This document shows, piece by piece, positions 5,180-53,283 of a stretch of 64,000 nt of DNA (its first letter is position 1; the number at the start of each line of letters is the position of its first letter). This DNA comes from Peronospora farinosa (taxonomy: Eukaryota > Oomycota > Peronosporomycetes > Peronosporales > Peronosporaceae), in the NCBI GenBank assembly GCA_947646735.1, contig CANTFK010000164.1, positions 124,001-188,000 of the forward strand, in the 5' to 3' direction. The notes under the pieces are model-generated. The model did no database searches. It saw nothing but the letters and a program-made list of their open reading frames with translations, and was not told where the DNA came from. The translations under genes and the position numbers were made by a program.

Positions 5180-5502
5180 TGTCACAGGGCATCTAGTTAC
5201 ACGTAAATATTAAGTAATATACTTAATGTTTGGAATTTATGATTACTTTTGACCTGTCACTTGGGTGCGATACACAAATGTGATCCACCCTCGTGAATGT
5301 GATATCCATTGATGGATCACATGAGAAGGGATGACGCTAGTTGAAGCTAGGCATCGCGACGTCTCAGAAGGACGTCAGTTGCAATCTTAAATCTAGATTT
5401 AAGATCATGCGACAGGATACGCTTCTAAAGAGTCGCGTATCCGATCTATATATATATATAGCCAATCAGTAGTTAAAACATATATTTAGTTATAATTAAT
5501 CA
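5180..5502 (+). repeat. 5' LTR of Gypsy element B1, first part (split by element A)
   Basis: It begins TGTCACAGGG and matches the LTRs of B2 (45126-45738 and 52666-53283), including AAATCTAGATTT and the hairpin around GATACGC. The LTR is broken at 5502 by element A and resumes at 19359. ATCA at 5499-5502 is repeated at 19355-19358, as expected for the target-site duplication of A. Confidence 0.88.
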
Positions 5503-6208
5503 TGTGGTGGAGTGGGATTCGCAAAATTGCTGATGCGATCCCAACTCTCCACTGGCGCCCGGACGACCGACTAACGGAGGGGGTACCCCGATTCCGTGTG
5601 TATAGCCTTCCTCACCTTGTGTACCCGTCGGTAGGGCGGGTTGCTCTCTTCTCGGTAGACTTGAGTCGATGTTGAACTTGATTGTGTTAGGGATAGGTGG
5701 GGGGGGGGGGGGGCGATCGCGAGGAATTCCTCACACGATCGCAGTTGTTCTTGGGGTGCTCTATTTGAGTCGCCCTGATCTCCCTTGAGATCGCCTTGTC
5801 CAAAAATGTAGATACTTGATCCGCTTGCCTTCTGACCACTTGAGCCGTCTCGCGATCTTGTATCTGGACTTCTTAGTCCTCTGCGTCCAATCGCAGCTTG
5901 ATTTGTTTTGTTGAAAATTCTTGCAATCCCTGGCCAAACAATCCAGGGATATGACTTGCGTAGTATGTAGACTTCCTTGAGACGTCGGAAGGCCAAAGGA
6001 TCCAGCCCGGAAGAGAAGTCGACACGTGTACTTAGAAGCAAATTGAACTCTGTTAATGTTAACCAATCAAATACCAAAACCTATGATCTTGACTATCTGT
6101 AGCTCAGGATCTGTTGCCACGTATCGCCCTTTCGAAAAAAAAATCAGATCTCGGAATGTGGTCCACTCCAATATAGCCGCGATCTGGATCGCTACCTCAC
6201 TCGGATAT

Positions 6209-6470
6209 AATACCATTTTAGTACCAGATCGCGGTACTAAATAATTAGTACCAGATCGCGGTACTAAATAATTAGTACCAGATCGCGGTACTAAATAATT
6301 AGTACCAGATCGCGGTACTAAATAATTAGTACCAGATCGCGGTACTAAATAATTAGTACCAGATCGCGGTACTAAATAATTAGTACCAGATCGCGGTACT
6401 AAATAATTAGTACCAGATCGCGGTACTAAATAATTAATACCAGATCGCGGTACTAAATAATTAATATCGG
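6209..6470. repeat. 27-bp tandem repeat in 3' LTR of A (9 units plus one degenerate)
   Basis: The unit contains the imperfect palindrome GTACCAGATCGCGGTAC followed by an AT-rich TAAATAATTA spacer. It is perfectly periodic, with unit length 27 counted by eye. The last full unit and the degenerate end have TTAATA in place of TTAGTA. The core CCAGATCGCGG also occurs inside two ORFs of the same element. Confidence 0.92.
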
Positions 6471-6876
6471 ATCGCGATCCGCCGGATCACGACTTGTCTT
6501 CTTCACCGTTTCTCAGGTCATGTGAGATAGTTCATCAATGTGACATTTCATATCCACCATTCCAGTCCTCCATAGCGACGTGATCCACACCAGACCGTCC
6601 TCCACATGCTTGGATGTACCCATCTTCCTCCTTAGCGACCGCGTTCACGCGGATCGCCATCGGAAATACTGGAGATCGCAATAGCGTAGTTTCTAGGCCA
6701 TATTTGACCCCACATAGAAGTGCAAACTACTCCATTCACTGTTTTCCATCCTATTTGACATCGTCTTGAAACCTTTCTGCGAGATCGCGACTCATCAATA
6801 TTGGCCACGAGATCGCGACTCATTAATATTGGCCATTTCATACTTAACCGAAAATATGCGATCACACTTGGCGAAA

Positions 6877-6892
6877 TTCACTCTTTCACTTC
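6877..6892 (+). promoter_or_regulatory. Candidate oomycete initiator motifs facing the antisense ORF
   Basis: TTCACTCT (6877-6884) and TTCACTTC (6885-6892) both fit the oomycete Inr consensus YTCANTYY. They lie at the inner edge of the LTR, about 92-107 bp upstream of the ATG at 6984. Position and orientation suit antisense transcription from the LTR. The motif is short, so this is a weak prediction. Confidence 0.3.
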
Positions 6893-6983
6893 GCCACAAT
6901 CGTCCCCTGCACCGATAGCCCACATACAGTGTTGGCCTAACTGTGCACTGTCTCGCTTCACTCTTCTCGTCACTCCGTCCCTT

Positions 6984-9680
6984 ATGGCCAGATCTACACC
7001 CGAAAACGATCGCCACCCCCAAACTGGTGTGCTCGTTACGCGCGATCCAACGATGGGTTCCTCTACCGGATCGCGTATCTTGCTCCCGTCTACCCGGATA
7101 ATCCTTCCTCCCGTTGCAGATCGTCAGAACGCGATCTCGTTGGTTTCTTCATTGTATGACCGCCTGGAAGCCCAGGATACCATCGTGGAAAGCTATCACT
7201 CCATGGAAAATGCCTTACGGGAGCAGGAATTTCGTGGAATTCAGCTGGAGACGGAACTCAACTCGTATCACGAGTTGGTGCCTCGACTGTGCACATTCGT
7301 CTTGCGTCGAGATGAAGAGTTGCGTCAACAACTTGATGCCGCTCTCCACATGGCCGAAGGTCTCGACGAAGAACTGAACCAGCTAACGGATCAGTCTCAG
7401 GAGATCGCCGATCTGAAGAATGCCTTGTTTCGAGCCAATGCAGAGAAACATCGCCTGCAGGATAAATTCCGCCGTGAGGCGGCCAATCTTCAGCGAACTC
7501 TGGAAGGAAAATTCCGGCAGCAGATCGCGTCCCTCCAACAGCAACTGGACTCCATCCTCGCACAGCGTAATACAGCAGACAGTGCTTTGGCCGCTGACTT
7601 TCGACGCATGAAAAGCAAGGCATCCAAGTACAAGAAAGCTCGTTCTCAGGCCCAGCAAGCCGCGAAACAACTGCAAGAGACACTGAGCGCGCTCGAGCTT
7701 GATCATGATCGCCTCCTGAGTACGAGTATTCGGAACGACGCAGCTTTGGATCGACTTCGTACCGAAGTTGCAGATCGAGAGGCAGAGCGCGATCTGGCCA
7801 TCCAGGATCGAGATTTACTTCGTTCGCATCTGGCAGAATTGGCTACGGGCTTACTTCCTTCTCCGACTAGCCTTCTCGCGCTTTCCAATCCCTCGTCACC
7901 CAATCGCAAACGTGCGTCATCTTCACCGACTCTGGACGTCCCCTGTAAACGTCCCCGCAGCGCTTTCGGTACTTCTGCTCAATCTGCGACCTCGGAGGGA
8001 TCTGGCATTCCAGCGCGATCTGGGACTTCGACGCGATCTGAAATTCCGGCGCAATCCGGTACTTCGGCACAGTCTAATACTTTGGCGCGATCTGGTACTT
8101 CGGCGCGATCTGGTACTCCACCGCGATCTGGTAACTTAACGCGATCTGGCACTCCGGCGCGATCTGGTACTTCAGCGCGATCTGGCACTTCAGCGCGATC
8201 TAGTATTTCTCCGCGATCTGGTACTCCGCCGCGATCTGGTAATTTAACGCGATCTGGCACTCCGGCGCGATCTGGTACTTCAGCGCGATCTGGCACTTCA
8301 GCGCGATCTAGTATTTCCCCGCGATCTGGTACTCCGCCGCGATCTGGTAATTTAACGCGACACCCGACGACTCAATCCACTCAATTTATTTTTCCGCGAT
8401 CTGGTACTCCGCCGCGATCTGGTAATTTAACGCGATCTGGTAACTCAGAACGGTCTGCCAAGTCGGTGCGATCCGTTATTACAACGCGACCCAATGTTTC
8501 GTCGAAAGCTAAAAAGAAACGCAAAACGTGTCCCTCGCCTTCGCCTGACTCTGAGTATGACGGCTGGTCTTCCGATCCCGAGGACGCTACACTTGCTGCT
8601 CTCTCCGGATCGCGTTCCACCACGAGGCGTCGCAACACCACGACGAAACTCTCTGGCAACACCGGATCGTCTCAGTCCCCTATCATAATTCACAATGGTA
8701 GCCCACCCTCCAAAAAATCACCAGTCTCGAGTCCTGCTACGCCCCCTAGCCTTACGACCAAGATTTCTAAGGTCGACCTTTTTGGCGAACCTTCTAGCGA
8801 CTCGGACGGGAAGATTAGCGTTTCCAGTGACATCCGTGAAGATATAAACCAGTTGCTCACTCCCGCTCAATACGCCGACCTGCCTGATCTCCAAAAATCA
8901 CGTGATGTGTGGATCCCAGGATATCGTGAGCGAAAGCCCCGATCGTCAACTCAGGTCGCTCCATGGTCCGCCCGACGGGTCAGTCTGACCAGTGTTGCCG
9001 AATTGGGAGTGGAGTTCTTCTATCGACACTTGTCCCGACCGAGAGGGTATATCTTCACCCCTCAAGCCAATCCCAAATCTCTTCTTGATTCTGAGTGGAT
9101 TCCCCGACTGATCACCCCGGCACAAGTTACTGCGCTTTACGATCAGAAACCGTGGAACGTCACTCGTCGGCCGATTGCTCCCATCTCTTTCCCGCTGACC
9201 GGTTGGTTCAAAGATCTGGCGGACATTTACCTGGAATATGAAGATCGCCATAGGCAAGCCTTGTGGGAGGCAACCCACTTCCTGTATATCTCCCGCGAAC
9301 TTCGGAAGGAGTATCCAGAGCTGGCGCAATTTTGTCAGCAACGCAAGCAGCGTCGGTCGAGATCTGGACCCCGCTGGAAGACTATTCTTCGCGTTATTCT
9401 CCAAGGGATGATCGAAGGACACTGTGATCTGGACATTTTGTTGGATCCATACTTCCTCCACTTTCCAGTGTACGCAGAAGTGCGACCATGGTATCCTGGT
9501 TTGGATTGCAAGCAGAAAAACATTCTTAACCTGATTACTGCACTGTCGTTATTGGATTCTGCGGAGCCTTGGCGGAACCAATATCGGTCCTCAATCGCGG
9601 ATCACCCCGGTTCATCCCTCGCCCGTTTATCCAGTAAATTCTTTCCCAAACAGCAGTCGGGATCTGATAACACTTCTTGA
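6984..9680 (+). CDS. Antisense ORF of element A: coiled-coil/Arg-Ser-Gly repeat protein
   Basis: An uninterrupted 898-codon ORF on the strand opposite gag-pol, between the 3' LTR and the end of the chromodomain frame (9864). The frame extends to 6801, but the first ATG is at 6984 (MARSTPEN). Order: a disordered start; a long coiled coil (about residues 60-290, Leu/Glu/Gln/Arg rich); a repeat block (about 330-520) built from RSGT, ARSG, PRSG and LTRSG; a Ser/Lys-rich basic stretch with KKKRK, possibly nuclear targeting; and a C-terminal 280-residue region rich in Trp, Tyr and Pro that looks globular (for example LTPAQYADLPDLQK and WFKDLADIYLEYEDRHRQAL). I do not recognise the family. The intact long frame in a young element suggests function. 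Plant Tat/Ogre-type Gypsy elements also carry antisense ORFs between integrase and 3' LTR; homology to those is not implied. Confidence 0.75.
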   Translation: MARSTPENDRHPQTGVLVTRDPTMGSSTGSRILLPSTRIILPPVADRQNAISLVSSLYDRLEAQDTIVESYHSMENALREQEFRGIQLETELNSYHELVPRLCTFVLRRDEELRQQLDAALHMAEGLDEELNQLTDQSQEIADLKNALFRANAEKHRLQDKFRREAANLQRTLEGKFRQQIASLQQQLDSILAQRNTADSALAADFRRMKSKASKYKKARSQAQQAAKQLQETLSALELDHDRLLSTSIRNDAALDRLRTEVADREAERDLAIQDRDLLRSHLAELATGLLPSPTSLLALSNPSSPNRKRASSSPTLDVPCKRPRSAFGTSAQSATSEGSGIPARSGTSTRSEIPAQSGTSAQSNTLARSGTSARSGTPPRSGNLTRSGTPARSGTSARSGTSARSSISPRSGTPPRSGNLTRSGTPARSGTSARSGTSARSSISPRSGTPPRSGNLTRHPTTQSTQFIFPRSGTPPRSGNLTRSGNSERSAKSVRSVITTRPNVSSKAKKKRKTCPSPSPDSEYDGWSSDPEDATLAALSGSRSTTRRRNTTTKLSGNTGSSQSPIIIHNGSPPSKKSPVSSPATPPSLTTKISKVDLFGEPSSDSDGKISVSSDIREDINQLLTPAQYADLPDLQKSRDVWIPGYRERKPRSSTQVAPWSARRVSLTSVAELGVEFFYRHLSRPRGYIFTPQANPKSLLDSEWIPRLITPAQVTALYDQKPWNVTRRPIAPISFPLTGWFKDLADIYLEYEDRHRQALWEATHFLYISRELRKEYPELAQFCQQRKQRRSRSGPRWKTILRVILQGMIEGHCDLDILLDPYFLHFPVYAEVRPWYPGLDCKQKNILNLITALSLLDSAEPWRNQYRSSIADHPGSSLARLSSKFFPKQQSGSDNTS
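8010..8450 (+). repeat. Repeat block inside the antisense ORF of A
   Basis: Degenerate 15-bp units of the form GCGCGATCTGGTACT, arranged partly in a higher-order block (8131-8235, repeated at 8236-8340). The core CCGCGATCTGG is the exact reverse complement of the LTR tandem-repeat core CCAGATCGCGG. Here it is read CGA-TCT-GG, giving Arg-Ser-Gly. Confidence 0.88.
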
Positions 9681-9863: not shown

Positions 9864-11196
9864 TTAGCCACCAGATCCCTCTTCATGTGATTGCATCACT
9901 TCAAAACGATTCCGGCTAATCTTGCCACGTTCAAAATCTCGCAATAAGGCACCACAATTTAAGTCGGCTTCATCCACCCAGGATGGTTTAGCATGACCTT
10001 TCCAGTAGACTTAACTTCTATGTACTCGTCCAAAACGTGTCTTTCTATCAGATCGTACATCCACAATCTTTTCCACTTCGAATTCATCGTCTCCCAGATT
10101 ACCTTCAAAACTGTCTTCTGGCAAAAGCGCTTCATCAAAATCGAATCGATATTCTTCTTCGATCGTCAGCAAATTTTTTGGACGATCAGGGAACGTCTTC
10201 ACTTTCTTCAACTTGGATATATGTACGACGGGAAATAATCGATATGGTGTACCAGCAATCTCCAGTCGGACAGCGTGATCTCCACACATTTCTTTTACTC
10301 GAAAAGGTCCATGCCACATATGTGCTAGCTTTCGAGCGTACCCTTCTTTCACACGATCCAAATATAACCAGACTTGCGCCCCCGGCTCAATTTCGTGAGG
10401 CTTGAGATCTTCATTGTGGCGATCAGCACGTGTTTGGATCGCAGTCCTGAGTCTCTCATTTACTGCTTCTCTCGCCCGCTGATAATGCCGCTGCATATGA
10501 TATCGCCACCTACGTGGATCGCGATCTCGACGCCTAGTACTTCCTAATGGTAACGTAGCTTCCAACGTAGATCTCGGGTCCCAACCATGAATCAAGAAAA
10601 ATGGCGTTTCGCCGCGCACCCGATCTTGAGCGGTATTGATTGCGAAAGTTAGACGTTCGGCATACTCATCCCAGTCTTGTTGATTAACGTCAGAGACATA
10701 CATCTCTAATGCACGAGTCAGAGTTTGCACCATACGTTCCGCAGTTCCATTCGCTTGAGGGCGATATGCCATCGTTGCCCTTTGCTTTTGCCCAATAAGT
10801 CGATTGAACGCACGAAAAAAATCCGACATAAACCCGGGCTCTCGATCGTGCCGTATCGCTTCACTCGCACCGAATCGTCGAAAGATACACTCCTCGTAAT
10901 TCTCGGCGATCGTCTGAGCTGTTCTAGAATTGCTCGCCTTGGCAACCACATAGCCCGAAAAGAGATCGACCCAGATCAATAATTCAGTGTTGCCTTTAAA
11001 AGATCTAGGCAGCGATGGAATATGATCCATGGCAATAATCTGGAACGGATAAGTAGCTTGTAAATTTCCCGGAGACTCTCCATTAATAACAAGACGTCCT
11101 TTTCCAGTCTCGCAGTCAGTGCATTCGCTCACATATCGTTGTACACTGCGATACAAGCCTCTCCAATGAAAACGAGATCGGATCCGTTGATACGTC
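9864..11196 (-). pseudogene. Integrase and chromodomain of element A (frameshifted, chromodomain interrupted)
   Basis: The integrase frame runs 11156-10011. The zinc-binding HHCC domain is split: its His pair (HYHASLKGGHQG) ends the RT frame at 11197 and its Cys pair (CTDC) is in this frame, with a one-base frame change in a short A run near 11190-11200. The core shows Asp (MDHIPSLP), Asp (RHDREPGF) and Glu (NGTAERMVQ). The C-terminal module (WHGPFRVKEM, FPVVHISKLKKV) precedes a chromodomain that starts FEVEKIVDVRSDRK. An in-frame TAA at 10013-10011 interrupts it, and the rest (WKGHAKPSWVDEADLN, then GALLRDFE) stays in frame to a TAA at 9866-9864. A chromodomain would tether integration to modified histones. 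The stop is either a lesion or a readthrough point. Confidence 0.85.
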
Positions 11197-13806
11197 CTAC
11201 CAATTTCCCTGGTGCCCTCCTTTCAAACTGGCATGGTAGTGACGTAGAAAAATTTGCTGAAGAGTTTCTGGCACCACCAAACGAGCAATTCCATCGCGAT
11301 CTTCCGAATTTTTCACAGCACCCGGGCAAAAAAAGAGAAGATCGCTTTCATCCACCTCATAATCACTTGCAATCTTGGCGCATGCCTTCGCTTCTTCCAT
11401 ACTGAGATTCGTTATATCACCAATCAGAAAAATCTTTAGGTTAGCGATCCAACATCCCTCATCTTGAGCTTGTCGTATACGTTCACTTCGCATTCGCTGC
11501 ACAAATTCTTCTTGCAAGATCTCGGGTGGTTGACGTCTTCTCCTAGTTGATCTGGTAATCGCAGCAGCTTTAACCACCGATTCGGTATGCTTCGACTTCA
11601 ACAACTCATCCAGTCTATTGAGGTTAATGAGATCTTGGCGATCTACTTCCGAAATGATGACCACACCTTGTTCCTTCTGTAAAGCAGTACTCGCCAGTCG
11701 ATCTGCACTTTGGTTCCAGTCGTGTTTCATGTGTAAAAACTCATGGATCGGCCATGATCGAAGCTTCTCCATTGCTTTCTGTCTCAACAACTGCAGTCCA
11801 GGAGCCTTGCAATCGATTTCACCCCGCATCTGTCGAATCACTAGGTTGGAGTCGCCACAAATAATAACGCGTCCCCTAGTTTGATTCTCCAACAGATCAA
11901 AGCCTAATAGTAAACCCCGATATTCGGCTTCGTTCACTGTTAAGTCCGTTGCATATTCCGATGCAGCAGCCACAATAGTCCACTCAGGAAGTTTCCATAT
12001 TATCGCACTGTATGATCCACCCTTTCGCTTGGTTCGTGCCGATCCATCGAAACTGACGACCAAGAGACTTTCATCTTCTTCCACCGTAGGCGGTGGCATA
12101 CTTAGAGTTTGCCTTGGCTGTTTCCGGGGAGCGATCGCAATCAACACTTCGTCGACTTCTTCACGGGGAGTCACACTTGCAGCCAGGGCACCAAGCATTT
12201 CATCTTCGCCCTTTTCACATTTCTTGATCTCCAAAGTCCAAGTCGATAATAATGCGGCCCACCTACCTAGCCTGCCATTGAGACCGAAGGATTGCACCAA
12301 CCAGGCCATCGTCGAGAAACGCGTAAGAACTTTAATCTCTCGCGAGACTAGCATGCAATAACATATATCCAAAATCCGAAGTAATGCTAGTATCTCCTTC
12401 TCGACCATTCCGTAATTGATTTCATTAGGCTTCAGCGTTCGGCTTGTAAAAGTAACTGGCCAATATATACCATCATACTCTTGCAATAAAGCTGCTGAAA
12501 CGGCCCATTTACTCGCATATACGACAATTACCGGAGGCCGATCTGGATCGAAGTGTCTGAGGATCGGGGTATTAGCGATCTTGGCTTTCAACATGGTAAA
12601 TGCGATCATCGCTTTTTCCCATCGAGTCCGTCCTTCTGGATCTGGATCGTCCCCAATATCGAACTTTTGATCTGAATCATTCCTGGTTGCGACAGTCGAA
12701 TCCAATGCATTCATCTTGTCAGAACAGCGGATTTCATGGAAATCTGCTTCCCTTAATTCATATAGCACTGACGCATAAATCGCAAAGTCTTCGACAAATC
12801 GACTATAGTAATTCAAGCTTCCCAGAAACGATTGCATCGATCGCAACGTTTTTGGGAACGGAATATTCACCAGCGATCCCAAATCCTTTGGATTAGCTTC
12901 GATTCCTGCCAGTGAGACTTGATGACCCAGGTAGTCCACCTTACGTCGTCCCCAAAAACTTTTAGCGAGACTGATCGACAAATTCCATTCGTTGCATACT
13001 TCTAACAATCGCTTTACCTTATCATATAAGGAGGCCCACGATGTTGCTGGAATTAGTATGTCATCAATATATGACCTTCGGCCAAGCACAGATGGCTTCT
13101 GGCTAGTATCCGGTTCGCCTTCTGTGAATACATCAACCAGCTTTGGCGATCCCGTTACCGTATCAGCGGAGTCGAGTGATCCTGTGGCAATTGCGTTTGG
13201 ATCCGTACCGATCTTGAGGTATCCATACAGTGCATTATCAATTAGGCGTTGGTAAATCTGCGGAGCGTTTTTTAGCCCAAACGGCATTCGTAACCACTCG
13301 AACAGGCCTGACGGCGTGACAAAAGCAGAAATCATCCTTGCTCGCTCGGTCATTTCCACGACCCAAAATCCACTGGCCATATCCAACGAACAATACCACA
13401 TAGCTTTATCCATATCTTGCAATAATTCGCTAATCAGAGGCATAGGATACACCATCAATCTCGTGAGTTGATTCACCCGCCGATAGTCAATACATAACCG
13501 GATGTCGACACCATTCTTTTTTATGATTACCACAATCGGCGAAGCCCATGGTGATGTCGACGGCTGGATAATCCTGGCTGATAGTAATCCTTTGATTAGG
13601 TCAGCTAACTTCTCGCGAAATTTGGGAGCGACCGGTCGTACTCGTTGTGCGATCGGGTGTGCTCCACCAACATCGATATCACATACTGCTCCTCGAGCTG
13701 CAGGAGGAAGCGCGTTTCCTTTGCCAATGAGTAAGTGTCGGTTCGCCCAAATTAATTGCCGTAGACTTTCTTGGTCCTTGGTTAAAGGAACTCCCGGATC
13801 GCCCAC
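11197..13806 (-). CDS. Element A reverse transcriptase with two RNase H domains
   Basis: The RT contains WASPIVVIIKKNGVDIRLCIDYRRVN, FGLKNAPQIYQRLI and the catalytic YIDD box. About 45 residues are inserted between the palm B and C motifs. The first RNase H domain keeps the fold pattern (SRTLKPNEINYGMVEKEILALL) but the usual DAS is YAS and the TDH motif is TRF, so it is probably inactive. A second RNase H near the C-terminus has all four acidic positions: FDGSA, NEAEYRGL, CGDSNLV and NQSADRLA. This is the archaeal/plant-like type. The frame starts at GTG immediately after the TAA that ends the protease frame and is in the same frame with it, so a fusion polyprotein needs readthrough, or the TAA is a mutation. 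The frame ends inside the integrase HHCC domain. Confidence 0.9.
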   Translation of the reverse strand: MGDPGVPLTKDQESLRQLIWANRHLLIGKGNALPPAARGAVCDIDVGGAHPIAQRVRPVAPKFREKLADLIKGLLSARIIQPSTSPWASPIVVIIKKNGVDIRLCIDYRRVNQLTRLMVYPMPLISELLQDMDKAMWYCSLDMASGFWVVEMTERARMISAFVTPSGLFEWLRMPFGLKNAPQIYQRLIDNALYGYLKIGTDPNAIATGSLDSADTVTGSPKLVDVFTEGEPDTSQKPSVLGRRSYIDDILIPATSWASLYDKVKRLLEVCNEWNLSISLAKSFWGRRKVDYLGHQVSLAGIEANPKDLGSLVNIPFPKTLRSMQSFLGSLNYYSRFVEDFAIYASVLYELREADFHEIRCSDKMNALDSTVATRNDSDQKFDIGDDPDPEGRTRWEKAMIAFTMLKAKIANTPILRHFDPDRPPVIVVYASKWAVSAALLQEYDGIYWPVTFTSRTLKPNEINYGMVEKEILALLRILDICYCMLVSREIKVLTRFSTMAWLVQSFGLNGRLGRWAALLSTWTLEIKKCEKGEDEMLGALAASVTPREEVDEVLIAIAPRKQPRQTLSMPPPTVEEDESLLVVSFDGSARTKRKGGSYSAIIWKLPEWTIVAAASEYATDLTVNEAEYRGLLLGFDLLENQTRGRVIICGDSNLVIRQMRGEIDCKAPGLQLLRQKAMEKLRSWPIHEFLHMKHDWNQSADRLASTALQKEQGVVIISEVDRQDLINLNRLDELLKSKHTESVVKAAAITRSTRRRRQPPEILQEEFVQRMRSERIRQAQDEGCWIANLKIFLIGDITNLSMEEAKACAKIASDYEVDESDLLFFCPGAVKNSEDRDGIARLVVPETLQQIFLRHYHASLKGGHQGNW

Positions 13807-15624
13807 TTAGATATCATCAATCGTAACTTCTTCGGTGGATGACACAATCTCAGGCAAGACAGCCATATGCTGATCCACATCTTCGGCATACAATTCACCA
13901 CTCTCATGACAATACATCGAGTCTTCAGGCTTCATCTTTACACTTCCTCCGGCTAGAATAAATTCGTCGTTGATAATCGTCGTGTCACTAGCTTGCTCTT
14001 GTTCTCGCAGATCGCGATCCAGATGGGCCAGATCGCGGTTATTAATTACGATATCGGCCAGATCGCGGTCATCGCGATCCAGATCAGCCAGATCGCAGTC
14101 CTCAATTGTCGGATCGGGGTTATCGCGATCCGGATCGGCCAGATCGCGGTTATTAATTACCATATCGGCCAGATCGCGGTCATCGCGATCCAGATCGGCC
14201 AGATCGCAGTCCTCAATTGTCGGATCGGGGTTATCGCGATCCAGATCGGCCAGATCGCGGTCATTGATTGCCAGATCAGCCAGATCGCAGTCCTCAATTG
14301 TCGGATCGCGCTCCATACATTTCGGTGTATAGTTATTGTGAGTGTAATTATCTTCACCCCACGGCCCTTTCACGTGATCGACATTTGACATCCCTCTGAT
14401 CGCATTGATTACCCATGGAGATTGCGCTACTTGCTCGCTTTCATCTTCGATCACCCGATCTTCTACATTGTTGCCACCGATTCCTCTTATCGCATCGCAT
14501 TCATCATTGGATCGTGTCGTGGGTTTCACTGTTTCCGTAGTCCTTTCTTCTGCTTCCTTTTTTGAGCGTGTTAAGATCCTCTTCGGCGTAGGGTACGAAG
14601 GATGGTCCACTAGCGGTCCGGTATATTCCTCCAGTGGTTCTTTTTCTCGATCCGTTGTCGCTTCGAACGCTAATGTCTGCCATTCGTTATACCGACGCGA
14701 TCCCACCGAGACATATCCTGGGGACCGAGGTATCATATCAGCAACCATCCACCAACCTAATGGCAATCCATGACTTAAAGTCACTTCTTGATCGCCGATA
14801 TTAGTCAGCTGTAGATACTTGATCTGACCTGGTCCCGTAGTTACTGTAGGTACCCGCTTCGGATCGCGCCTCACCCAGATCTTGGCTTTAGGAGGACTAA
14901 CTCCGATCTTCACTTCGGTCGATTTGCCCACGGGAATCACCACATATTGATCTGGAATTGTGATCGCTTGTATGGTCGCCCGGTAAGGGGGTCTTCGTCC
15001 ATTCAGAAGTATCCTGACCTCATCAGGCAAACAAAGTGTTCCATCTGCTAAATCCAGGCGTATTCCAGCTGGGACCATAAAATCCATTCCTAGGATCGCG
15101 TCTTGACCTACTTGATCTCCTACCCAAGCATCAAAATAATAGACTAGCGATCCATTCAGCGTGATCTTGATTCTTGTACGACCGTCCGTCATGTATATGT
15201 TCTCATCAATCCCAACACATTCTTGCCTCTGACTCTCGTCAATGACACATCCTACCTTACGAGCAAAGGTGGTGTCGACGATTGAGACTTCGGCTCCAGA
15301 ATCAAACAACATAATCGCCTTTTCATTGTTGATCTTGCCCGTTGCCTTGGCTTGCTTGAACCATTTTCCTGGGGTATGATATTTCCAATATCCCCGTGAT
15401 TCACCTGGTGCTAAGTCGAGCTCCATTTTCGCAGGCGATCGGGCATATTCATCAACTCTTACGACGCTTGATATTGAACGCAGAAATTTTGAATCTTCAC
15501 ATGTATTATTCGGGTCAATCTGAGTGTTAACGCCCTGATCTGTCGATTTTCTTTCCACAAATGCATAAATGCAGAGCCTAGAACGCTCGGCTCGTACCAG
15601 ATTCCAACCTGGCGAGCGTCCTAG
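13807..15624 (-). CDS. Element A retropepsin-like protease and linker (entered by -1 frameshift)
   Basis: An aspartic protease domain with the active-site motif LFDSGAEVSIV near residue 90 and the ILGMDFM signature about 80 residues later. The frame is in -1 relation to gag and is open from the slippery site at 15630-15624, so it is probably made only as a Gag-Pro-Pol fusion. The first methionine-type codon of the frame (GTG, 15558) is not a likely start. The C-terminal half is a disordered linker with tandem DRDLADLD/TIEDCDLADL repeats (about 14310-13990). The frame ends in TAA at 13809-13807 directly before the RT frame. Confidence 0.88.
   Translation of the reverse strand, partial: LGRSPGWNLVRAERSRLCIYAFVERKSTDQGVNTQIDPNNTCEDSKFLRSISSVVRVDEYARSPAKMELDLAPGESRGYWKYHTPGKWFKQAKATGKINNEKAIMLFDSGAEVSIVDTTFARKVGCVIDESQRQECVGIDENIYMTDGRTRIKITLNGSLVYYFDAWVGDQVGQDAILGMDFMVPAGIRLDLADGTLCLPDEVRILLNGRRPPYRATIQAITIPDQYVVIPVGKSTEVKIGVSPPKAKIWVRRDPKRVPTVTTGPGQIKYLQLTNIGDQEVTLSHGLPLGWWMVADMIPRSPGYVSVGSRRYNEWQTLAFEATTDREKEPLEEYTGPLVDHPSYPTPKRILTRSKKEAEERTTETVKPTTRSNDECDAIRGIGGNNVEDRVIEDESEQVAQSPWVINAIRGMSNVDHVKGPWGEDNYTHNNYTPKCMERDPTIEDCDLADLAINDRDLADLDRDNPDPTIEDCDLADLDRDDRDLADMVINNRDLADPDRDNPDPTIEDCDLADLDRDDRDLADIVINNRDLAHLDRDLREQEQASDTTIINDEFILAGGSVKMKPEDSMYCHESGELYAEDVDQHMAVLPEIVSSTEEVTIDDI
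13990..14310 (-). repeat. Repeat block in the protease-RT linker of A
   Basis: A higher-order array of about 105 bp with five exact CCAGATCGCGG cores on the plus strand and many CGCGATCC motifs. On the coding strand the core is read CGC-GAT-CTG-G, giving Arg-Asp-Leu. That is a different reading frame from the one used by the antisense ORF repeats. Confidence 0.88.
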
Positions 15625-15630
15625 TTTAAC
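15578..15630 (-). promoter_or_regulatory. -1 ribosomal frameshift signal between gag and protease of A
   Basis: The heptamer G TTA AAC (15630-15624) is in the gag frame and immediately precedes the gag stop TAG (15623-15621). The protease frame is exactly the -1 frame. A 12-bp stem with one G-U pair can form between 15624-15613 (CTAGGACGCTCG) and 15589-15578 (CGAGCGTTCTAG), with an inner CCAG/CTGG hairpin in its loop. GUUAAAC is a known viral slippery heptamer. Confidence 0.72.
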
Positions 15631-17531
15631 ATTTCTTCAGCCTTCGGCGGAAGCATTCCAGCATGCTTGGTTGGGACATACCACTTGCGTATCATGTTGT
15701 AGAATTCTTCCATCCGGAACTTTTCACTCTCATGGACATCTCCGCAGACAGTACAGGTGTAAAAACACTTGTCCGAAGGATGTCCCTTACGACCACACTT
15801 CTGACACGTTAGTCTTTTCCAGCATCCACGATCATAATGTTTCTTTGACCCACAATGGTTACAAGCCTTCTGATTCACCACGCGATCTGGACCGCGATCT
15901 TGATCCAAATAGTCTGATCCCGCGCGTTGATCACTATATTTCTTCACGCGATCTGGTACTGTGGCCACACATAAGTTGCGTCGATCTATTTCGGCGTCTG
16001 ATCCACTAATATCCGAGTCTGACTCACTGCTACTGCCTTCCAGATGAATCGCTCTCACAGCACGAGTTGGTTTCGAGGGTGCCGGAGTGGATGCCGACGC
16101 AGATCGCTGACGAAATTTGCTCGATCCCATTGCACTCGGATACTGTCTTCCCTCCATGCGTTGATATGTTCGCAGAGTTTCTTCCATATCATCGGCGTCT
16201 CCAAGGCGTAACAACGTCAACTGCTTAGCCAGATCGCGATCATCCAGTGTACCAATGAAATGTTCCACATGTTCTCGGCGAATTGAGGGCGATCCTTCCC
16301 GAATGGGGATTTTTGCTCGGATCGCGGCCACATTCAGTCGATACAAATATTCCAATGGAGTTTCATCAGATCGCTTCTTCGCATGGTAGTATTGTCTCCC
16401 GACCGACCTACCATATCCACAATACTGGATCATGAAGGTTTCCAGCAACGACTTCCATGAATTCCGGGTGGATCGACTTAACTGGCTATACCAATTTCGT
16501 GCCGGCCCCGTAAGTAAATCACCAAATACTAGACATTTTTCATCATCCGGGGCTTGGCCGCGTAAGAACGCCGACTTGGCCTTGTTGACCCAACTTCTCG
16601 CTCGATCTTCATCCTTGTCCCGTCCTGTAAATTCTTTCAGATCTGCGATCGCAGACATTCGAATCCGCTGCGTGACAAGTCCACCATTAGGTACAGCGCC
16701 TGCACTTGCGACTTGTGGCCGTCTTAGATCCTCCAGACCCAAATCGTCTGGATCATAATTATTGGATCGCGATTGACGCGATCCGGCCGATTCCATATCC
16801 ACATCCGAAATGCAAGCTTTTGGGGTGTTTGTGGGGATCGCGGATCGACTGGCGATCATGCGAGCTTGATCCTGCTCGTACTTTCTCATGGCAGCTTCAA
16901 AATAAGATTGCAATTGACCTGATCCATTCACGTTCATGTCTTCAGCTGTGAGTGCCGTCGTCGATTGTTCTTTGGCCTTAATCGGTGCCAGTCGCTCGCG
17001 AATATGCGCTGCACCAGCCGGTCCAAGTGACATTCGCTGCATATTAATCGAGTCGTCCGACTCCCCTTCGGATTCCGCTGACATATATTGCGAAGATCCC
17101 GTATGATATCCTTTTGGTATATCTGCAATCGGCTGGATCGTCTGATCCACCGGATCGCGCTCTCCAATTAGAGGAACTAGCTTCGAAAACAGAGATCGCC
17201 CTGCTTGGATCACCCGATCATGATCGCATTCCAACAGCACCTGCGCGTCAAAAACTCCAGCGGTGAATCCAGCGTTCTGGAGCAACTCCATAAGCCGACG
17301 GATCGCTTCCAACTGGTTCGGTGTCGGAATGGGAGCTGAAATTGGTCCTCGCAGCGATCCAATCAACTTCGGTTTCAAAATCTTTAGAACGGGATCGCTT
17401 GACAACAGATCTTTAAGCGCCTTCCAATGAAAACACCATTCCATCTGATCCAGTTGCCATCCTTTCGCCTTGTCTTCCTCATGCGCTGGCTTCACGTCGA
17501 TATCATCATGATCCGACTCAGGCGCCTTCAT
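15621..17531 (-). CDS. Element A Gag
   Basis: A 636-codon Gag starting at ATG 17531 (a GTG lies two codons upstream). The central part holds a retrotransposon-gag capsid-like region (WVNKAKSAFLRGQAPDDEKC, then ARNWYSQL). The C-terminus has two CCHC zinc knuckles (CNHCGSKKHYDRGC and CQKCGRKGHPSDKC) and a further Cys pair. It packages the element RNA. The reading frame stays open upstream to a TGA near 17703 but has no other ATG. It ends at the TAG of the frameshift signal. Confidence 0.87.
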   Translation of the reverse strand: MKAPESDHDDIDVKPAHEEDKAKGWQLDQMEWCFHWKALKDLLSSDPVLKILKPKLIGSLRGPISAPIPTPNQLEAIRRLMELLQNAGFTAGVFDAQVLLECDHDRVIQAGRSLFSKLVPLIGERDPVDQTIQPIADIPKGYHTGSSQYMSAESEGESDDSINMQRMSLGPAGAAHIRERLAPIKAKEQSTTALTAEDMNVNGSGQLQSYFEAAMRKYEQDQARMIASRSAIPTNTPKACISDVDMESAGSRQSRSNNYDPDDLGLEDLRRPQVASAGAVPNGGLVTQRIRMSAIADLKEFTGRDKDEDRARSWVNKAKSAFLRGQAPDDEKCLVFGDLLTGPARNWYSQLSRSTRNSWKSLLETFMIQYCGYGRSVGRQYYHAKKRSDETPLEYLYRLNVAAIRAKIPIREGSPSIRREHVEHFIGTLDDRDLAKQLTLLRLGDADDMEETLRTYQRMEGRQYPSAMGSSKFRQRSASASTPAPSKPTRAVRAIHLEGSSSESDSDISGSDAEIDRRNLCVATVPDRVKKYSDQRAGSDYLDQDRGPDRVVNQKACNHCGSKKHYDRGCWKRLTCQKCGRKGHPSDKCFYTCTVCGDVHESEKFRMEEFYNMIRKWYVPTKHAGMLPPKAEEMLN

Positions 17532-17537
17532 CTTCAC

Positions 17538-19354: not shown

Positions 19355-19358
19355 ATCA

Positions 19359-19629: not shown

Positions 19630-19631
19630 CT

Positions 19632-20768: not shown

Positions 20769-20770
20769 TC

Positions 20771-27385: not shown

Positions 27386-27387
27386 CC

Positions 27388-36945: not shown

Positions 36946-37005
36946 CTTAGTAGCACTTGAAGTCAATTTTATACCTGAGTTTATAAAGACTGACCCTCTG
37001 TGAGG

Positions 37006-39475: not shown

Positions 39476-39479
39476 ATAG

Positions 39480-41079: not shown

Positions 41080-42640
41080 AATTCCTCATGATGAGGACCT
41101 GTAGTATCGTATCCTCTATGAGGTACATGACACCGCCATCGGTGGTCATTTGGGTCGTGAAAAGACCTATGGAGCAGTATGCCAAAGTTATTGGTGGCAT
41201 ACTTATATAAATGGGTGAGCACGTATGTGCGTACGTGTGAAACGTATCAACGGTTGAAACCCTCGCCCCATTCGGCAGCTCCTCTGGATAGTTTGCCTAT
41301 TCCCACTGGGTGCTGGGAGTCCATTAGTATAGATTTGTGTTTGGCCTACCGAAAAATTCGCATGGCAACGCAGGTATTGTGGTCTTTGTTGACCGTTAAA
41401 GCAAGATGGGTCACTTAGCGGCTGTGCCAGACTCGATCGATGGTAAAGGTACAGCGTAACAGTTTATCGATCGAGTGTTTCACTAACATTGCTTGCCAGT
41501 GGCAATTGTTTCTGATCGTGATCCTCGTTTTACGAGTAAGTTTTGGAAGTCCGTCTTCCAGGTGCTGGGCACCCGTTTGGACATGTCCACAGCGGATCAT
41601 CCGCCAACTGATGGTCAAACCGAACGCGTATATCGCGTTGTTGAAGATATTCTCCGCAGTGCTTGTGCTGAAACGCCTAAGCGTTGAAGCTTAATGCTCC
41701 CTATTGTTTAATTTTCACTCAATAACTCTGTGCACGTCTCTACCGGCTACACTCCGTTCTATGTTAATGGTCTCACACACCCACGCGTTCCGTAAACGCT
41801 ACCACCGAGGTGTTCAGGGCTTGGTGGGGGAGAGGTTGCCGATCGGCTTTTAATGTCAGCCCTAATACTGTCAAGATACAGGTGTACGCGTTTCTTGCAA
41901 CGCGACTAAATGTCTTACGACATGTGCAAGATGCAATGGCTGATAGTCAAGACAAACAAAAAGAATATGCAGATGCTGAAGGCAGAAATTGTATGATTTG
42001 TTATGAGGTCGGAGACCATATTTTACTTAATGCTAAAAACCTACCTACCAATTTAGTATCTGCTGTCTTTAAGACAAAGTTGAGTCCGCGCTTCATCGGA
42101 CCCATTACGGTCGTGGCCAAGAAAGGCTTAGCGTATACGCTTAGTCTGCCTCGCAAATTGCGTACGCACCCCGTGTTCTGTGTTGGCATGCTCAAGCCAT
42201 ATCGGGATCCTTCCCAAGTGAACACTAAGGCGCTCGCGCCGAGCTCATCGGCATTGCCGTGGGACGCATCATCAGCACCAAAAGTCCAAGCTGACCCTCC
42301 ACTCGGGTTAGGCTCTGTTCCAGCGACTCGAGCTGGATTTCATCGACTGCACAGTCCCACGGAGAGACTGCAACTCCTGAAGTAGCTCGGCATGAGCTTG
42401 TGCCGATACACCGGCCTCCTCCGGCTTTGTTCGATGGACAGGGGAACCTTCAGTTCCATGTGGAACGTCTACTGCAGAAACATCGCCGCCATGGTCAAAC
42501 CAGTATCTGGTGAAGTGGAGGGGAAATCCAGAGTCGTGGAACTCATGGGAGTTTGAGGTTCCCCTTCGGCAAGAATGCCCATACGCCATGGACGGTTTTG
42601 AGCGTCGTGCACAGGGCCAACCTGTTAGCGACGACGCTTC
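41080..42640 (+). pseudogene. D integrase and chromodomain
   Basis: Fragments of HHCC ([10 protein letters not shown], then CETYQRLKPS with one Cys changed), the core ([27 protein letters not shown]), the C-terminal module (KLSPRFIGPITVV, HPVFCVGMLKPY) and a chromodomain split by one frame change near 42495 (LQFHVERLLQKHRR, then YLVKWRGNPESWNSWEF). Confidence 0.82.
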
Positions 42641-43505
42641 TCAGCAGTACTGGTGAGGGTAGTTGAGTTAGCGGCCTCGGCCTGTCGTGAACTAGCGGCT
42701 ACAGGTGTAGCCGAAACATTGAGGTGCTGGGTAGCAGACGCATCATGCGTTCGTTTAGACTTTAATTTTCCCCGGGCCTTCAATTTAGCGTAATCGTAAC
42801 GCATTTTCCGTTCGAGACGAACATCTGCCACATCGGCACTTGCCCGTAGGGCCCACATGCTGCTTAAACGTCGCGCATATTGCTCCTAGCGGCTAAAATC
42901 CATGTCTTCTTCTTCCTCGGTTTCCCCCGCGAACAGAAGGATTGGAACACCCTTTATTTGAGGTACTGGTGCACCGCTCACTTGCCTAGGGAGGCGTGCC
43001 AAGTATTGGCTCTGATTGGTGATATGAGGTTCCAGATAGCGTTGTCGAAGGGCCGTTTACGTAGCGACATCCTCGGGTGAAATGGCCTCAGGCCCAATGG
43101 CCCAACCAGAAAGAGAATGTCCAGATGCCTCCTTAAGGCGTTCTTCCACTGTAGGTGGTTTGCACCTATACTGGCGGTGGTCCAAAAGCCTCGCCATATT
43201 CTTTGTCCGGCGTTTAGCGCCTTCCTCTTGATCAATGGTATGCTGCTGCTGCTCGTCGAGTGGGTTAGTAACCGTCGCTTTTGACGATACGTCAGGCGGG
43301 TCACGTAACGCTGTTAGCGCATCTACAGCACCACGTTCAGGGAACGAATTCGGTGCATGACTACTGTCATCTTCACCCGTAAGGGTGGTTAAGGGAGACC
43401 CATCGGGTCCCACAAAGACGGTGTCACTCTCGTAATCAACCGCTTCGTCAAGGTCGCCTTCAATGAGGTCCCGTATATTCTGGACTCATTGCCAGGAGGC
43501 GTCAT
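42308..43505 (-). pseudogene. D antisense ORF remnant
   Basis: A start MTPPGNES at ATG 43505, 111 bp from the 3' LTR. After a frame change the sequence reads acidic (LIEGDLDEAVDYESDTVF, GPDGSPLTTLTGEDDS) and continues to EDVAT at 43057. One stop later it is open again (ALRQRYLEPHITNQSQYLAR, LLFAGETEEEED), then a basic part (DYAKLKARGKLKSKRTH), and a C-terminal helix opposite the chromodomain (AELLQELQSLRGTVQSM, 42589-42308). The design matches the antisense ORFs of B and C: acidic start, central region, basic stretch, coiled coil. Confidence 0.6.
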
Positions 43506-43616: not shown

Positions 43617-44239
43617 TGTAACGGGGATAAACGACGGTTGTAACATCATTCCGAAAGTTTACGGTTGAAGTTTCTATATTGCATGTAATGCATTTTGATA
43701 CTTCTCTATCGAGAGGTATAAAGTATGAGCGTTAAAGATACGGTATCCGGTAATACCGTATTTTTTTGATTAGGATTCGATAATCGATAACGCCGTACTA
43801 AGTACATCATACACAGATATTTAGACGATACGTCGTCCAATAGCAAAGTCTGCATATTATGGTTACTATTATAGTAATTAATCTAGTGTAGGGTACTTAG
43901 AGTAGGACTATTCATAAAATCTTAATGCATAAATAAAATCAGTTCTCATTTTGAGTTTAAGATCGCAAGTCGTTCTGACTTGTTCTCTTGTGCACTTCGT
44001 ACGTTGGTTCTCCGAACCAACAAGCTTCTAGCTATTTCTTGCACTCTGTGCGTTGGTTATCTGAACCTTAAGCTTATTGCGTCTCTCCTAGATCCTTAGA
44101 ACAGGGCGACTTTTTAGTCATTTAATTAGTTCCTTAGAACTAAGTGGCTTTTAGCCGTACATTTATTTAGTTCACTAGAACTAAGAGGCTTTCAGCCTAA
44201 AGTTTTCCCCTGACTAAAGAGCTGTGCAGCTCCGCTACA
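43617..44239 (+). repeat. 3' LTR of element D (623 bp)
   Basis: Matches 36318-36945 with a handful of substitutions and short indels near the start. It is preceded by the purine tract. A-type sequence resumes immediately afterwards at CGGCATATAATTTACC. Confidence 0.9.
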
Positions 44240-44890
44240 CTCGGCATATAATTTACCACTTTCATGATAGGTAAATTTCCTATATTCTTCTTCACATTCT
44301 TTTGTCAAGATAACTTCATCTTTAACATCGTTCATTTAAATAGGAAGCTTTCGTGATCAAAAGTCGCGATCCAAAATTTTCGAATTGTGGCCAATACTTA
44401 TCGGATCACGATTAATAATTTTCGGATTGCGGTCAATAATTTCTCGAGATCGCACTCAAAATTATCGGACCGTCATCAATATCTTCAGCACCGTGATCAA
44501 TAATTTAAGGATCGTGATCTATTAATTGTGGATCGTGATTAATCAATTGATGCTATTTCCGGATTTTCCGCTTGCATTCCTTTGATTTTTATTGATCACA
44601 AAAAGAAATTGCGTCTTATTTCTGATCTTTTTTCTTCTGTGAGTATCGTATATCGGAACACCTTCATCTTCGTATTGCGATACGATCTTTACTACTTCCA
44701 TGACCCTTCCTTCTGTTTCCTCTTTGGACGGATAAAGATTTGATTGGCGTAGAATACTTATAATGATCCTCTAGTGGTCCAAAAAAAATCTTCCAAAGGA
44801 TCTTCTTCTCGATCCGTTGTCTCTTCAAATGATAATGTCTGTCCTCGTTATATCAACGCGATACAATTGAGGTATATCCTGGTGCTCGAG
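44240..44890 (-). pseudogene. A2: decayed A-type protease fragment, second part
   Basis: Similar to element A from about 13885 to 14720: CGGCATATAATTTACCACT against CGGCATACAATTCACCACT, then degenerate GATCGC-type linker repeats (44380-44540), then TTCTCGATCCGTTGTC. Relative to A, about 1.4 kb is missing between the two A2 parts at the D insertion. Confidence 0.72.
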
Positions 44891-45845: not shown

Positions 45846-47290
45846 ATGCCACCAAAACGTGGTAAGGCTGATGGGTCGCCTGCAAAGGCACCCATGCAGT
45901 CCAGCACTAAGCGTACGCGCCGCGATTTATCGCAGCCGTCGCAAAGTGCGTCAGGCACTGGGGTGGATCTTCTATCTCACGATAATGTGGATGAAGATCC
46001 ATCTCTCATTGTTGACTACAATGAGACCACACCACTGCCATCACCCCAAAGTGGCGATGAGCTTAGTGCATTGATGGGACATATTCCCCATCATTTGAGG
46101 CACCCGTCCTTGAGGAAGCATCTATGCTTCCTACAAGCGAAGGTAACGCCTCGTCGTCTGCGCCTACGAGCGCAGCGACTAAGACTGAGCACGCTACTTC
46201 GAAAGGAGTAGTCGCGACTCAGTCAGATGTAACTCCTCAAGCTGATGTCTTGACAATCCATAATGGAGAGTCAGACTCAGGTGAGTGGGAGCACTAAGCT
46301 CCACCAAGTACACCTTCGGCCTCACTAGCCCGCCGTCGCGAGGGCGGATACGTGAGTGGTGGCTTGCCACCAATGCCACCTCCATCTGAGTGGATGCACT
46401 CAAATGGGTCTAGCGCATCGCTTTTGCAGCGTGCCACTATAGACGCTCATAGATTCTATAGCGTCTTTCCTTTGTGGAAAAAGCAGGGCAAAGCACTTGG
46501 TCGTGCTTTCCCAATTCCAGTCGTGCTGCGTTTTAGCGAAACAGCCGACGACTATGAAGCTGAAATTCGGCGCCGTGTTACCTTGCATGAAGATGCAACG
46601 AAACAGCGGTCGCAGCGAATCAGCTTCGCCATGAAGCGTGCGCATGAAATTTTGGGTGGTAAGCGACCCCCAATTAATTCTCGCCACGCTTCTTCTGCTA
46701 GTCCTTCCGGACCTAGCAGAAAGAAGACAGCTAGTGCTGCTTCACATAAGCTTCCACCAGCCCAGGCACGTCAACGCGCAAAGCGTCCACAGGCTCCCAC
46801 GAGTCAAAGCTCGTTGGGTAACCCTTCCATTGGACAAGGATTTGGAGCTTTTGCTTCACAAACCGGTGGGCCAACAGCCTTCCAACAAGGAAGCGCGTGT
46901 TCCCATCCGTGTCCACCAACACAGGTGGCGCCCGATAGGAGTGGCGATTACGCCCACCTAATCGCGGCTGCCTACCCTGCTGCTGTTCAGTCGCAGGCTG
47001 AGTCCGCTGCGCTGAAGAGGCAGGTGACAGATCTCGAGAGTCAAGTTTCGCGACTGACCTCGGATCTGCGTGATGTGAGGGCGAGAGACCGTCAGGGGTA
47101 TGACCGCCTGAAGACCCGTTTGGACATCTTAGAGCGACTGGTGATGAGAGACCCGCGTCAAGCGCGGAGTCCTCCTCGATCACCGAGTCCTCTGTCGCCT
47201 CGTTCATACACGGGGAGCCTCTCGGCTTCCTCGTCGCCTGATCGGTCGCGACGCTCGACTCACAGTCGGCGTCACCATCGGTCTCGTTAG
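45846..47290 (+). pseudogene. B2 antisense ORF
   Basis: ATG 45846 (MPPKRGKADGSPAK) is 107 bp from the 3' LTR. The acidic N-terminal part (DEDPSLIVDYNETTPLPSP) runs to a one-base loss near 46085. The shifted frame is then continuous to 47290 except for one TAA at about 46296, which B1 shares. The 312-codon part (46352-47290) has the FYSVFPLWKKQGKALG and FSETADDYEAEIRRR segments, a basic Ser/Pro region opposite the chromodomain, a coiled coil (VTDLESQVSRLTSDL, LKTRLDILERLV) and an SP/RS-rich end. No family recognised. Confidence 0.72.
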
Positions 47291-52606: not shown

Positions 52607-52645
52607 CTTAACCACACGCACGCTCAGAGAGACGGGTCGTGGGAA

Positions 52646-52663
52646 GGACAGCTAGTGCTACCA
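52646..52663 (-). promoter_or_regulatory. Primer-binding site of B2
   Basis: TGGTAGCACTAGCTGTCC lies two bases inside the 5' LTR. It is one base different from B1. Confidence 0.6.
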
Positions 52664-52665
52664 AG

Positions 52666-52974
52666 CGTAGACGGGCACTTCTACGAAGTTGCCTCGTGAT
52701 ACTAGCACACACCTTCAGCACAAGCGAGGTGGCGTTCTGACCGTCTTACCTTCGCGTGCGAGGGTGGTTGGGAGGTTGGTCGACTGCTTAAGCAGTCGTA
52801 CCACCAGTTGCACTCTCGCTTAAGCGAGAGTGCAACGAACTTCTTAACAAGAAGGCACCGACGTCACGTAGAAGCTTTTCGGCTTCTCGTGCGTGGTGCT
52901 TCGGTTTAAGGAAATTCAAGACTGAGATATATTTAACTAATTATAACTAAATATATGTTTTAACTACTGATTGG

Positions 52975-53009
<35 letters not shown>

Positions 53010-53283
53010 TCGGATACGCGACTCTTTAGAAGCGTATCCTGTCGCATGATCTTAAATCTAGATTTAAGATTGCAACTGACGTCCTTCTGAGACGTCGCGA
53101 TGCCTAGCTTCAACTAGCGTCCTCCCTTCTCATGTGAATCCATCAATGGATATCACATTCACGAGGGTGGATCACATTTGTGTATCGCACCCAAGTGACT
53201 GGTCAAAAGTAATCATGGATACTTTTAGACCAAACATTAAGTATATTACTTAATGTTTACGTGTAACTAGGTACCCTGTTACA
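52666..53283 (-). repeat. 5' LTR of B2 (618 bp)
   Basis: Starts TGTAACAGGG in element sense and ends CCGTCTACG, like the B1 5' LTR. It contains the 30-bp palindrome (52807-52836), the 18-bp palindrome (52781-52798) and an (AT)n run of about 32 bp. Followed by GACGC at 53284-53288. Confidence 0.92.

What the first reader, a model, noticed from the sequence alone, without database searches (positions are those of the whole stretch)
5180..53283. Every Gypsy element in the window carries an antisense ORF starting 56-111 bp inside its 3' LTR
Seen directly: long minus-relative-to-pol frames begin at ATG 6984 (A, 85 bp from the LTR), 26440 (B1, 56 bp), 34429 (C, 79 bp), 43505 (D, 111 bp) and 45846 (B2, 107 bp). 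A is uninterrupted (898 codons); C is one stop short of about 459 codons. Sequences differ but position, orientation and a coiled-coil component recur. Established parallels: antisense ORFs in plant Tat/Ogre elements and antisense genes of some retroviruses (for example HBZ of HTLV-1). Inference: oomycete Gypsy elements have an LTR-driven antisense gene, possibly controlling Gag, RNA fate or silencing.
Basis: partly seen in the sequence, partly recalled or inferred. Interest (0 to 1): 0.87.

Follow-up and report, generated by a model that had tools for sequence, protein, structure and literature searches.

The report
Antisense genes in oomycete retrotransposons
Four different families of jumping genes in this genome, apparently a Phytophthora-like or downy-mildew-like oomycete, each carry a protein gene on the opposite strand that starts next to the same repeat and is kept by selection; such genes were known from some plant and fungal elements and from retroviruses, and these are unrelated versions in another lineage.

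Summary
Anatomy confirmed, but window evidence is uneven. All five elements (four families: A, B1/B2, C, D) have an antisense ATG 56-111 bp from the inner edge of the 3' LTR. In the window only A is uninterrupted (898 codons); C stops after 349, B2 121, D 38, B1 29. Elsewhere in the genome open frames exist in every family (A 837-898, B 481, C 457-487, D 427 codons). They cross 898/289/201/285 codons with no pol ORF opposite without a stop (0 of 2000 simulations each). There, variants shared between copies are depleted of amino-acid changes (ratio 0.24-0.37 for A, B, D; C 0.74, not significant, at first, 0.25 in its conserved block after adding diverged copies; integrase control 0.34). Relatives of the A and C products are annotated in Phytophthora and Peronospora. 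The four products are not detectably related, though RT is 52-68% identical among B, C and D. I read them as genuine antisense accessory genes, analogous to plant Retand/Grande, fungal Boty brtn and retroviral HBZ. LTR-driven transcription rests on position only; a regulatory role is inference. Nine literature searches found no oomycete report.

The parts
6984..9680 (+). Element A antisense gene, 898 codons, uninterrupted; N-terminal coiled coil (res. 47-287), low-complexity Ser/Arg/Pro middle with 18-bp tandem repeats, conserved helical C-terminal domain (about 640-865)
5503..6901 (-). Element A 3' LTR (element on - strand)
17912..19357 (-). Element A 5' LTR
10011..17537 (-). Element A gag, PR, RT-RNaseH with second RNase H-like domain (RVT_3), integrase ORFs
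33380..34429 (-). Element C antisense gene, 349 codons to a premature stop; frame resumes to 33050; 457-487 codons in other copies
27044..27385 (+). Element C 5' LTR
34509..34850 (+). Element C 3' LTR
27412..33891 (+). Element C gag and pol ORFs incl. RT, RNase H, integrase, SH3_Tf2-1 and chromodomain
42496..43482 (-). Element D antisense gene relic (84% identical to an intact 427-codon copy, residues 9-337, 3 stops); ATG at 43505
36318..36947 (+). Element D 5' LTR
43617..44241 (+). Element D 3' LTR
46070..47287 (+). Element B2 antisense gene relic (95% to an intact 481-codon copy, residues 76-481, 1 stop); ATG at 45846, first stop after 121 codons
45127..45738 (-). Element B2 3' LTR
52667..53283 (-). 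Element B2 5' LTR
24997..26397 (-). Element B1 antisense gene relic (90%, residues 13-479, 3 stops); ATG at 26440
26497..27041 (+). Element B1 3' LTR (diverged B-type LTR; outer end not fixed)

Best explanation
Each of the four Gypsy families carries an accessory protein gene on the strand opposite gag-pol. It sits between pol and the 3' LTR in A and overlaps the 3' end of pol tail to tail in B, C and D. In the copies examined its start codon lies 78-112 bp from the inner edge of the 3' LTR (B1 in the window: 56). Shown: open frames in many copies, purifying selection on the antisense frame where no pol ORF lies opposite, and protein conservation across species for A and C. Inferred from position: transcription starts near the U3 edge of the 3' LTR, so the LTR works in both directions. 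Inferred from composition and analogy: the products are nuclear, coiled-coil, in A and C Arg/Ser-rich, proteins that act in trans on the element's own expression or RNA, as HBZ/APH-type retroviral antisense proteins and the nuclear Grande protein are said to do, rather than enzymes or structural proteins.
For: No stop over 898/289/201/285 codons without pol opposite; 0 of 2000 simulations each. N/S test on genomic copies, shared variants, antisense frame: A 1-300 ratio 0.24 (N3 S7, p 0.021), A 521-898 0.37 (N11 S12, p 0.011), B 0.33 (N11 S14, p 0.003), D 0.27 (N19 S33, 0 of 2000); C codons 41-201 0.25 (N10 S18, 0 of 400) with eight more diverged copies. C integrase positive control 0.34, C LTR negative control no depleted frame. 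Relatives: 21 proteins for C, 12 for A residues 610-898; the C block conserved across species lies outside the pol ORF except for its last few residues. ATG-LTR distance hardly varies. In P. infestans start sites lie 32-144 nt, median 50, upstream of the ATG (PMC3599244, section 5), so the promoter upstream of such a start would lie largely in the LTR. Gypsy elements in P. infestans give small RNAs of both orientations (PMC3522703, passages).
Against: No transcript, promoter or protein evidence. C gave only 0.74 (p 0.21) in the first copy set; the 41-201 block was chosen after seeing the cross-species alignment. Singletons are weaker: A 0.84 and 0.55, B 0.85, C 0.90, D 0.55. In the overlaps, B is constrained but not separable from pol, and the antisense frame of C and D is not constrained. 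NLS-like bipartite motifs are no more frequent than in shuffles and RS dipeptides are enriched in A and C only. D was inserted recently (LTRs differ at 5 of 625 sites) although its antisense gene and pol are broken, so the gene is probably not needed in cis. In other species I could not check that the gene is antisense; one unnamed 1,923-bp contig has the A-type domain in the same frame as RT (P0031).
Confidence: 0.7

Rival explanations
1. The antisense frames are by-products of codon constraint on pol, or chance.
For: B, C and D frames overlap the end of pol over about 140-280 codons; three window copies have no long frame.
Against: All four frames stay open where no pol ORF lies opposite, and selection is seen there. 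A does not overlap pol at all.
Confidence: 0.02
2. The RNA matters, not the protein: antisense transcription makes double-stranded RNA that feeds silencing or tunes the element.
For: Small RNAs of both strands from oomycete Gypsy elements (PMC3522703, passages); the review PMC7264820 raises this for plants.
Against: RNA-level function does not predict depletion of amino-acid changes or protein conservation across species. It may act in addition.
Confidence: 0.08
3. Captured host genes carried as passengers.
For: The four products are not detectably related to each other, as expected of separate captures.
Against: No Pfam family over its cut-off in the four products and no PDB sequence match for C, the only one tried. 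Passengers decay, whereas shared variants here are about as constrained as in C integrase. Host orthologues were not searched for outside elements.
Confidence: 0.1
4. Antisense genes transcribed from their own internal promoter, independent of the LTR (as reported for Grande).
For: Grande gene23 is driven by a promoter upstream of the gene (PMC7264820); the 78-112 bp leader could hold a start site, and A has Inr-like pyrimidine motifs around -107, -99 and -27 (pattern recalled).
Against: With start sites 32-144 nt upstream of the ATG in P. infestans there is little room for a whole promoter outside the LTR; no Inr-like match within 400 nt upstream of B2, C or D.
Confidence: 0.2

Closest known systems
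Plant Retand (Tat) elements with antisense ORFs, TRP28 domain (PMC11963269; abstract and passages seen)
   Same: Antisense gene between pol and 3' LTR; [quoted passage not shown]
   Different: No TRP28 among the Pfam matches of the four products at E <= 10; the host appears to be an oomycete; B and C carry a chromodomain.
Maize Grande gene23 / rice RIRE2 aORF-3R (PMC7264820; parts 1 and 2 of 3 read)
   Same: Antisense accessory gene conserved in most copies; nuclear product reported for Grande.
   Different: Sequence comparison not made here; Grande is reported to use its own promoter.
Botrytis Boty brtn (named in PMC7264820 and in passages of PMC8365987; Zhao et al. 2011 not read)
   Same: Antisense extra gene in a non-plant LTR element.
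   Different: Reported for Boty-like elements of a fungus; sequence not compared.
HTLV-1 HBZ and APH-type antisense genes (PMC10186651; passages seen)
   Same: Antisense gene expressed beside the 3' LTR in a retroelement; HBZ has a leucine-zipper-type component.
   Different: HBZ transcripts start inside the LTR (R/U5), occur spliced and unspliced, and encode a bZIP; here single-exon frames start outside the LTR and no bZIP domain was found in the four products.
Oomycete Archon and Chronos elements (PMC5348765; abstract, section 5 and passages seen)
   Same: A has two RNase H-like domains, as described for both groups.
   Different: 'antisense' occurs 0 times in its main text. A has no chromodomain hit (Chronos has one); Archon is described as Saprolegniales-specific.

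Membership tests
Antisense accessory genes of LTR retrotransposons (aORF-3R) | Antisense ORF between pol and 3' LTR, present in many copies of a family | tested here: met
   the sequence is present in many copies and the frame is intact in a part of them; in B, C and D it overlaps the end of pol
Antisense accessory genes of LTR retrotransposons (aORF-3R) | Conservation comparable to other element proteins | tested here: met
   shared-variant ratios 0.24-0.37 (A, B, D) and 0.25 (C block) against C integrase 0.34; first C set 0.74, not significant
Antisense accessory genes of LTR retrotransposons (aORF-3R) | Antisense transcript | not testable with these tools
   no RNA data
Plant Retand/Tat lineage | Second RNase H next to the native one | tested here: met
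   element A: RVT_3 E 6.1e-10 after RT_RNaseH; that it is of archaeal type was not tested; not among the matches of the C pol ORF
Plant Retand/Tat lineage | TRP28 (PF04195) in the antisense protein | tested here: not met
Plant Retand/Tat lineage | RT clusters with Retand | not tested
   no RT tree made
Chronos (oomycete) | Double RNase H plus chromodomain in one element | tested here: not met
   A: RVT_3 but no Chromo hit at E <= 0.01; C: Chromo but no RVT_3 hit; B and D not fully tested
Archon (oomycete) | Double RNase H without chromodomain; RT clade | tested here: inconclusive
   domain layout of A fits; RT clade not tested; the paper calls the group Saprolegniales-specific
HBZ-type retroviral antisense genes | bZIP domain in the antisense protein | tested here: not met
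   no bZIP among the matches of the four proteins; one of 12 members of the A-type alignment has bZIP_1 at E 0.097
HBZ-type retroviral antisense genes | Transcription from the 3' LTR | not testable with these tools
   position only

The most novel reading that the evidence does not exclude
Antisense coding is a general, repeatedly acquired property of oomycete Gypsy elements: the slot beside the 3' LTR, fed by a two-way LTR, has been filled by at least four unrelated proteins of loosely similar design (coiled coil plus basic low-complexity stretch, with a helical domain in A and C) that turn over faster than pol, as expected of an arms race with silencing or between element families.
Probability: 0.35. 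Interest if true: 0.78.

Novelty: new variant of a known kind. Interest (0 to 1): 0.62.

Why it matters
Antisense genes in LTR elements were known from plants, a fungal family and some retroviruses. Four unrelated ones, each under selection, in one apparently oomycete genome suggest that the slot opposite the pol end is a general site for accessory genes. They also warn that a number of 'hypothetical proteins' annotated in Phytophthora and Peronospora are probably retrotransposon antisense products, and they give defined proteins with which to ask what such genes do.

Full report
Observation. The window lies in a 46.85-Mb, 274-contig assembly. Self-comparison gives four LTR pairs (A, C, D, B2) and a fifth element, B1, whose 5' LTR is split by A. 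A and B2 run on the minus strand; B1, C and D on the plus strand. The antisense ATGs exist at the stated places; measured distances to the inner 3' LTR edge are 82 (A), 56 (B1), 79 (C), 111 (D) and 107 bp (B2). In the window only A is open (898 codons). C has one stop after 349 codons; B2, D and B1 stop after 121, 38 and 29 codons.

Families, not copies. I searched the genome with each product. A: 99 matches. C: 135 matches for the 349-aa form and 104 for the 481-aa form. B: 127 with a fragment, 89 with the full product. D: 40 DNA matches and 101 protein matches. Matches are stretches, and the tool calls such counts lower bounds. Rows that span the whole query without a stop: D 32 of 101, B 22 of 89, C 11 of 104. 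Among fetched loci, open frames were found in 24 of 30 A loci (15 of 21 distinct elements), 16 of 30 C, 8 of 8 B and 4 of 8 D (2 of 8 full length). Loci were best matches or picked from the tables, so these are not unbiased rates. Where both were found, the ATG keeps its distance from the LTR edge: A 82 in 29 loci (30 searched), C 78-79 in 30 of 30, D 109-112 in 7 (8 searched), B 90-107 in 8 of 8.

Not a mirror of pol. The A gene does not overlap pol. In B, C and D the antisense gene overlaps the last part of pol, which carries the chromodomain in B and C, but its first 289, 201 and 285 codons have no pol ORF opposite. Over 898, 289, 201 and 285 codons the antisense frame has no stop while the other five frames have 3 to 43, and 0 of 2000 first-order Markov simulations per family were stop-free in that frame.

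Selection. For variants among genomic copies, broken ones included, I compared the fraction that change the amino acid with that expected from the same base changes placed at random. Distinct rows: A 18 (of 21 loci given), B 8, C 30, D 8; the repeat part of A (codons 301-520) was left out. Variants shared by at least two copies were treated as inherited from source elements, singletons as mostly post-insertion. In the non-overlap stretches the antisense frame gives, for shared variants, 0.24 (A 1-300, N3 S7, p 0.021), 0.37 (A 521-898, N11 S12, p 0.011), 0.33 (B, N11 S14, p 0.003), 0.27 (D, N19 S33, 0 of 2000) and 0.74 (C, N22 S14, p 0.21); for singletons 0.84, 0.55, 0.85, 0.55 and 0.90 in the same order. 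p values are one-sided and uncorrected. With eight more diverged C copies and four of the earlier ones, the shared-variant ratio is 0.46 over codons 1-201 (p 0.010) and 0.25 over the block 41-201 (N10 S18, 0 of 400); that block was chosen after seeing the cross-species alignment. The minus frame that shares third positions also looks depleted, as geometry demands, but it holds 4-25 stops in these stretches. Controls: C integrase, shared 0.34 (p 0.001), singletons 0.96; C LTR, no frame significantly depleted; A integrase, singletons 0.37, too few shared; the A LTR control failed for want of distinct rows. In the overlaps the B frame is constrained (shared 0.33, p 0.054; singletons 0.49, p 0.009) but not separable from pol, and the antisense frames of C and D are not constrained (C again).

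Relatives elsewhere. The C product has 21 relatives, covering 20-90% of the query; the named ones are from P. capsici, P. ramorum, P. rubi, P. fragariae, P. infestans, P. nicotianae, P. megakarya, P. cactorum, Peronospora matthiolae and P. destructor, under names such as hypothetical or uncharacterised protein. The block WxLYDLSGA...RFRxLRxK...LQRSWCAxIxRWNRM...CYVxVxEGCxxC (alignment A2) lies outside the pol overlap except for its last few residues. The A product gave one spurious hit as a whole, but residues 610-898 gave 12 at 42-64% identity, six of them from five named Phytophthora and Peronospora species. I could not check in those species that the gene is antisense to pol. P0031, from an unnamed 1,923-bp contig, has the A-type domain in one frame with RT; a chimeric assembly or a rearranged element would both explain it. 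P0030 joins the domain to a GRF zinc finger, perhaps a gene-model fusion.

What the proteins look like. A: coiled coil 47-287, disordered Ser/Arg/Pro middle, helical C-terminal domain around 710-865. C: helical domain at 46-181 of the 349-aa form, Arg/Ser-rich stretch, and in longer copies a weak C-terminal coiled-coil (alanine-zipper) match. B and D: weak coiled-coil matches near the C-terminus. No Pfam family over its cut-off, no PDB sequence match for C, no convincing fold match. The four products are not detectably homologous, although RT is 67% identical between B and C and 52-68% between D and those two; A is 32-36% to B and C. The antisense genes have therefore been replaced, acquired independently, or diverge much faster than pol.

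How it most likely works. Shown: coding and selection. Inferred: promoter. In P. infestans, start sites lie 32-144 nt (median 50) upstream of the ATG (PMC3599244, section 5); with the ATG 78-112 bp from the LTR, such a start falls within about 80 nt of the LTR edge on either side and its promoter largely in the LTR. HTLV-1 antisense transcripts start inside the 3' LTR (PMC10186651, passages); Grande instead uses a promoter upstream of its gene (PMC7264820). Inferred: a nuclear protein acting in trans. In line with trans action, D was inserted recently (LTRs differ at 5 of 625 sites) although its antisense gene and pol are broken. I put coding plus selection at about 0.95, LTR-edge transcription at 0.65 and a regulatory role in the element's own expression or RNA at 0.4.

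Novelty. Antisense genes in this position are known in plants (Retand, Grande, RIRE2) and in fungal Boty (PMC7264820, parts 1-2 of 3 read; PMC11963269, abstract and passages). For oomycetes nine literature searches found no report (a tenth was for promoters), and the paper on oomycete aRNH elements has the word 'antisense' 0 times in its main text. From these listings only some papers were opened. Most subscription papers and Repbase are outside that library. I rate it a new variant of a known kind.

Noticed in passing
window 60151-62325 +: Dicer-like helicase and dimerisation domains (DEAD, Helicase_C, Dicer_dimer) about 7 kb from the retrotransposon cluster; the rest of the gene, if any, was not examined.
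   Followed up: no
window 5180-5502, 19358-27041: B1's 5' LTR is split by element A, and its 3' LTR (from 26497) is only about 73-76% like the B-type LTRs in the window, so B1 looks like a mosaic of two subfamilies.
   Followed up: partly
window 36318-44241: D has nearly identical LTRs (5 of 625 differ) but broken pol and antisense gene, and is 85-88% like its best matches: probably a defective lineage moved in trans.
   Followed up: partly
window 27044-34850: C LTRs differ at 1 of 342 sites and gag and pol ORFs are long: a recent insertion whose antisense gene nevertheless has a premature stop.
   Followed up: no
window 6137-6625, 18539-19081: 27-bp tandem repeats inside the A LTRs; the two LTRs differ in length (1399 and 1446 bp).
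   Followed up: no
window 36-1604, 1660-4335, 55271-58744: Host genes: patatin-like phospholipase, guanylate-binding protein, NFACT family.
   Followed up: no
P0031: One ORF joining an RT with the A-type antisense domain in the same frame, on a 1,923-bp contig of unnamed source.
   Followed up: no
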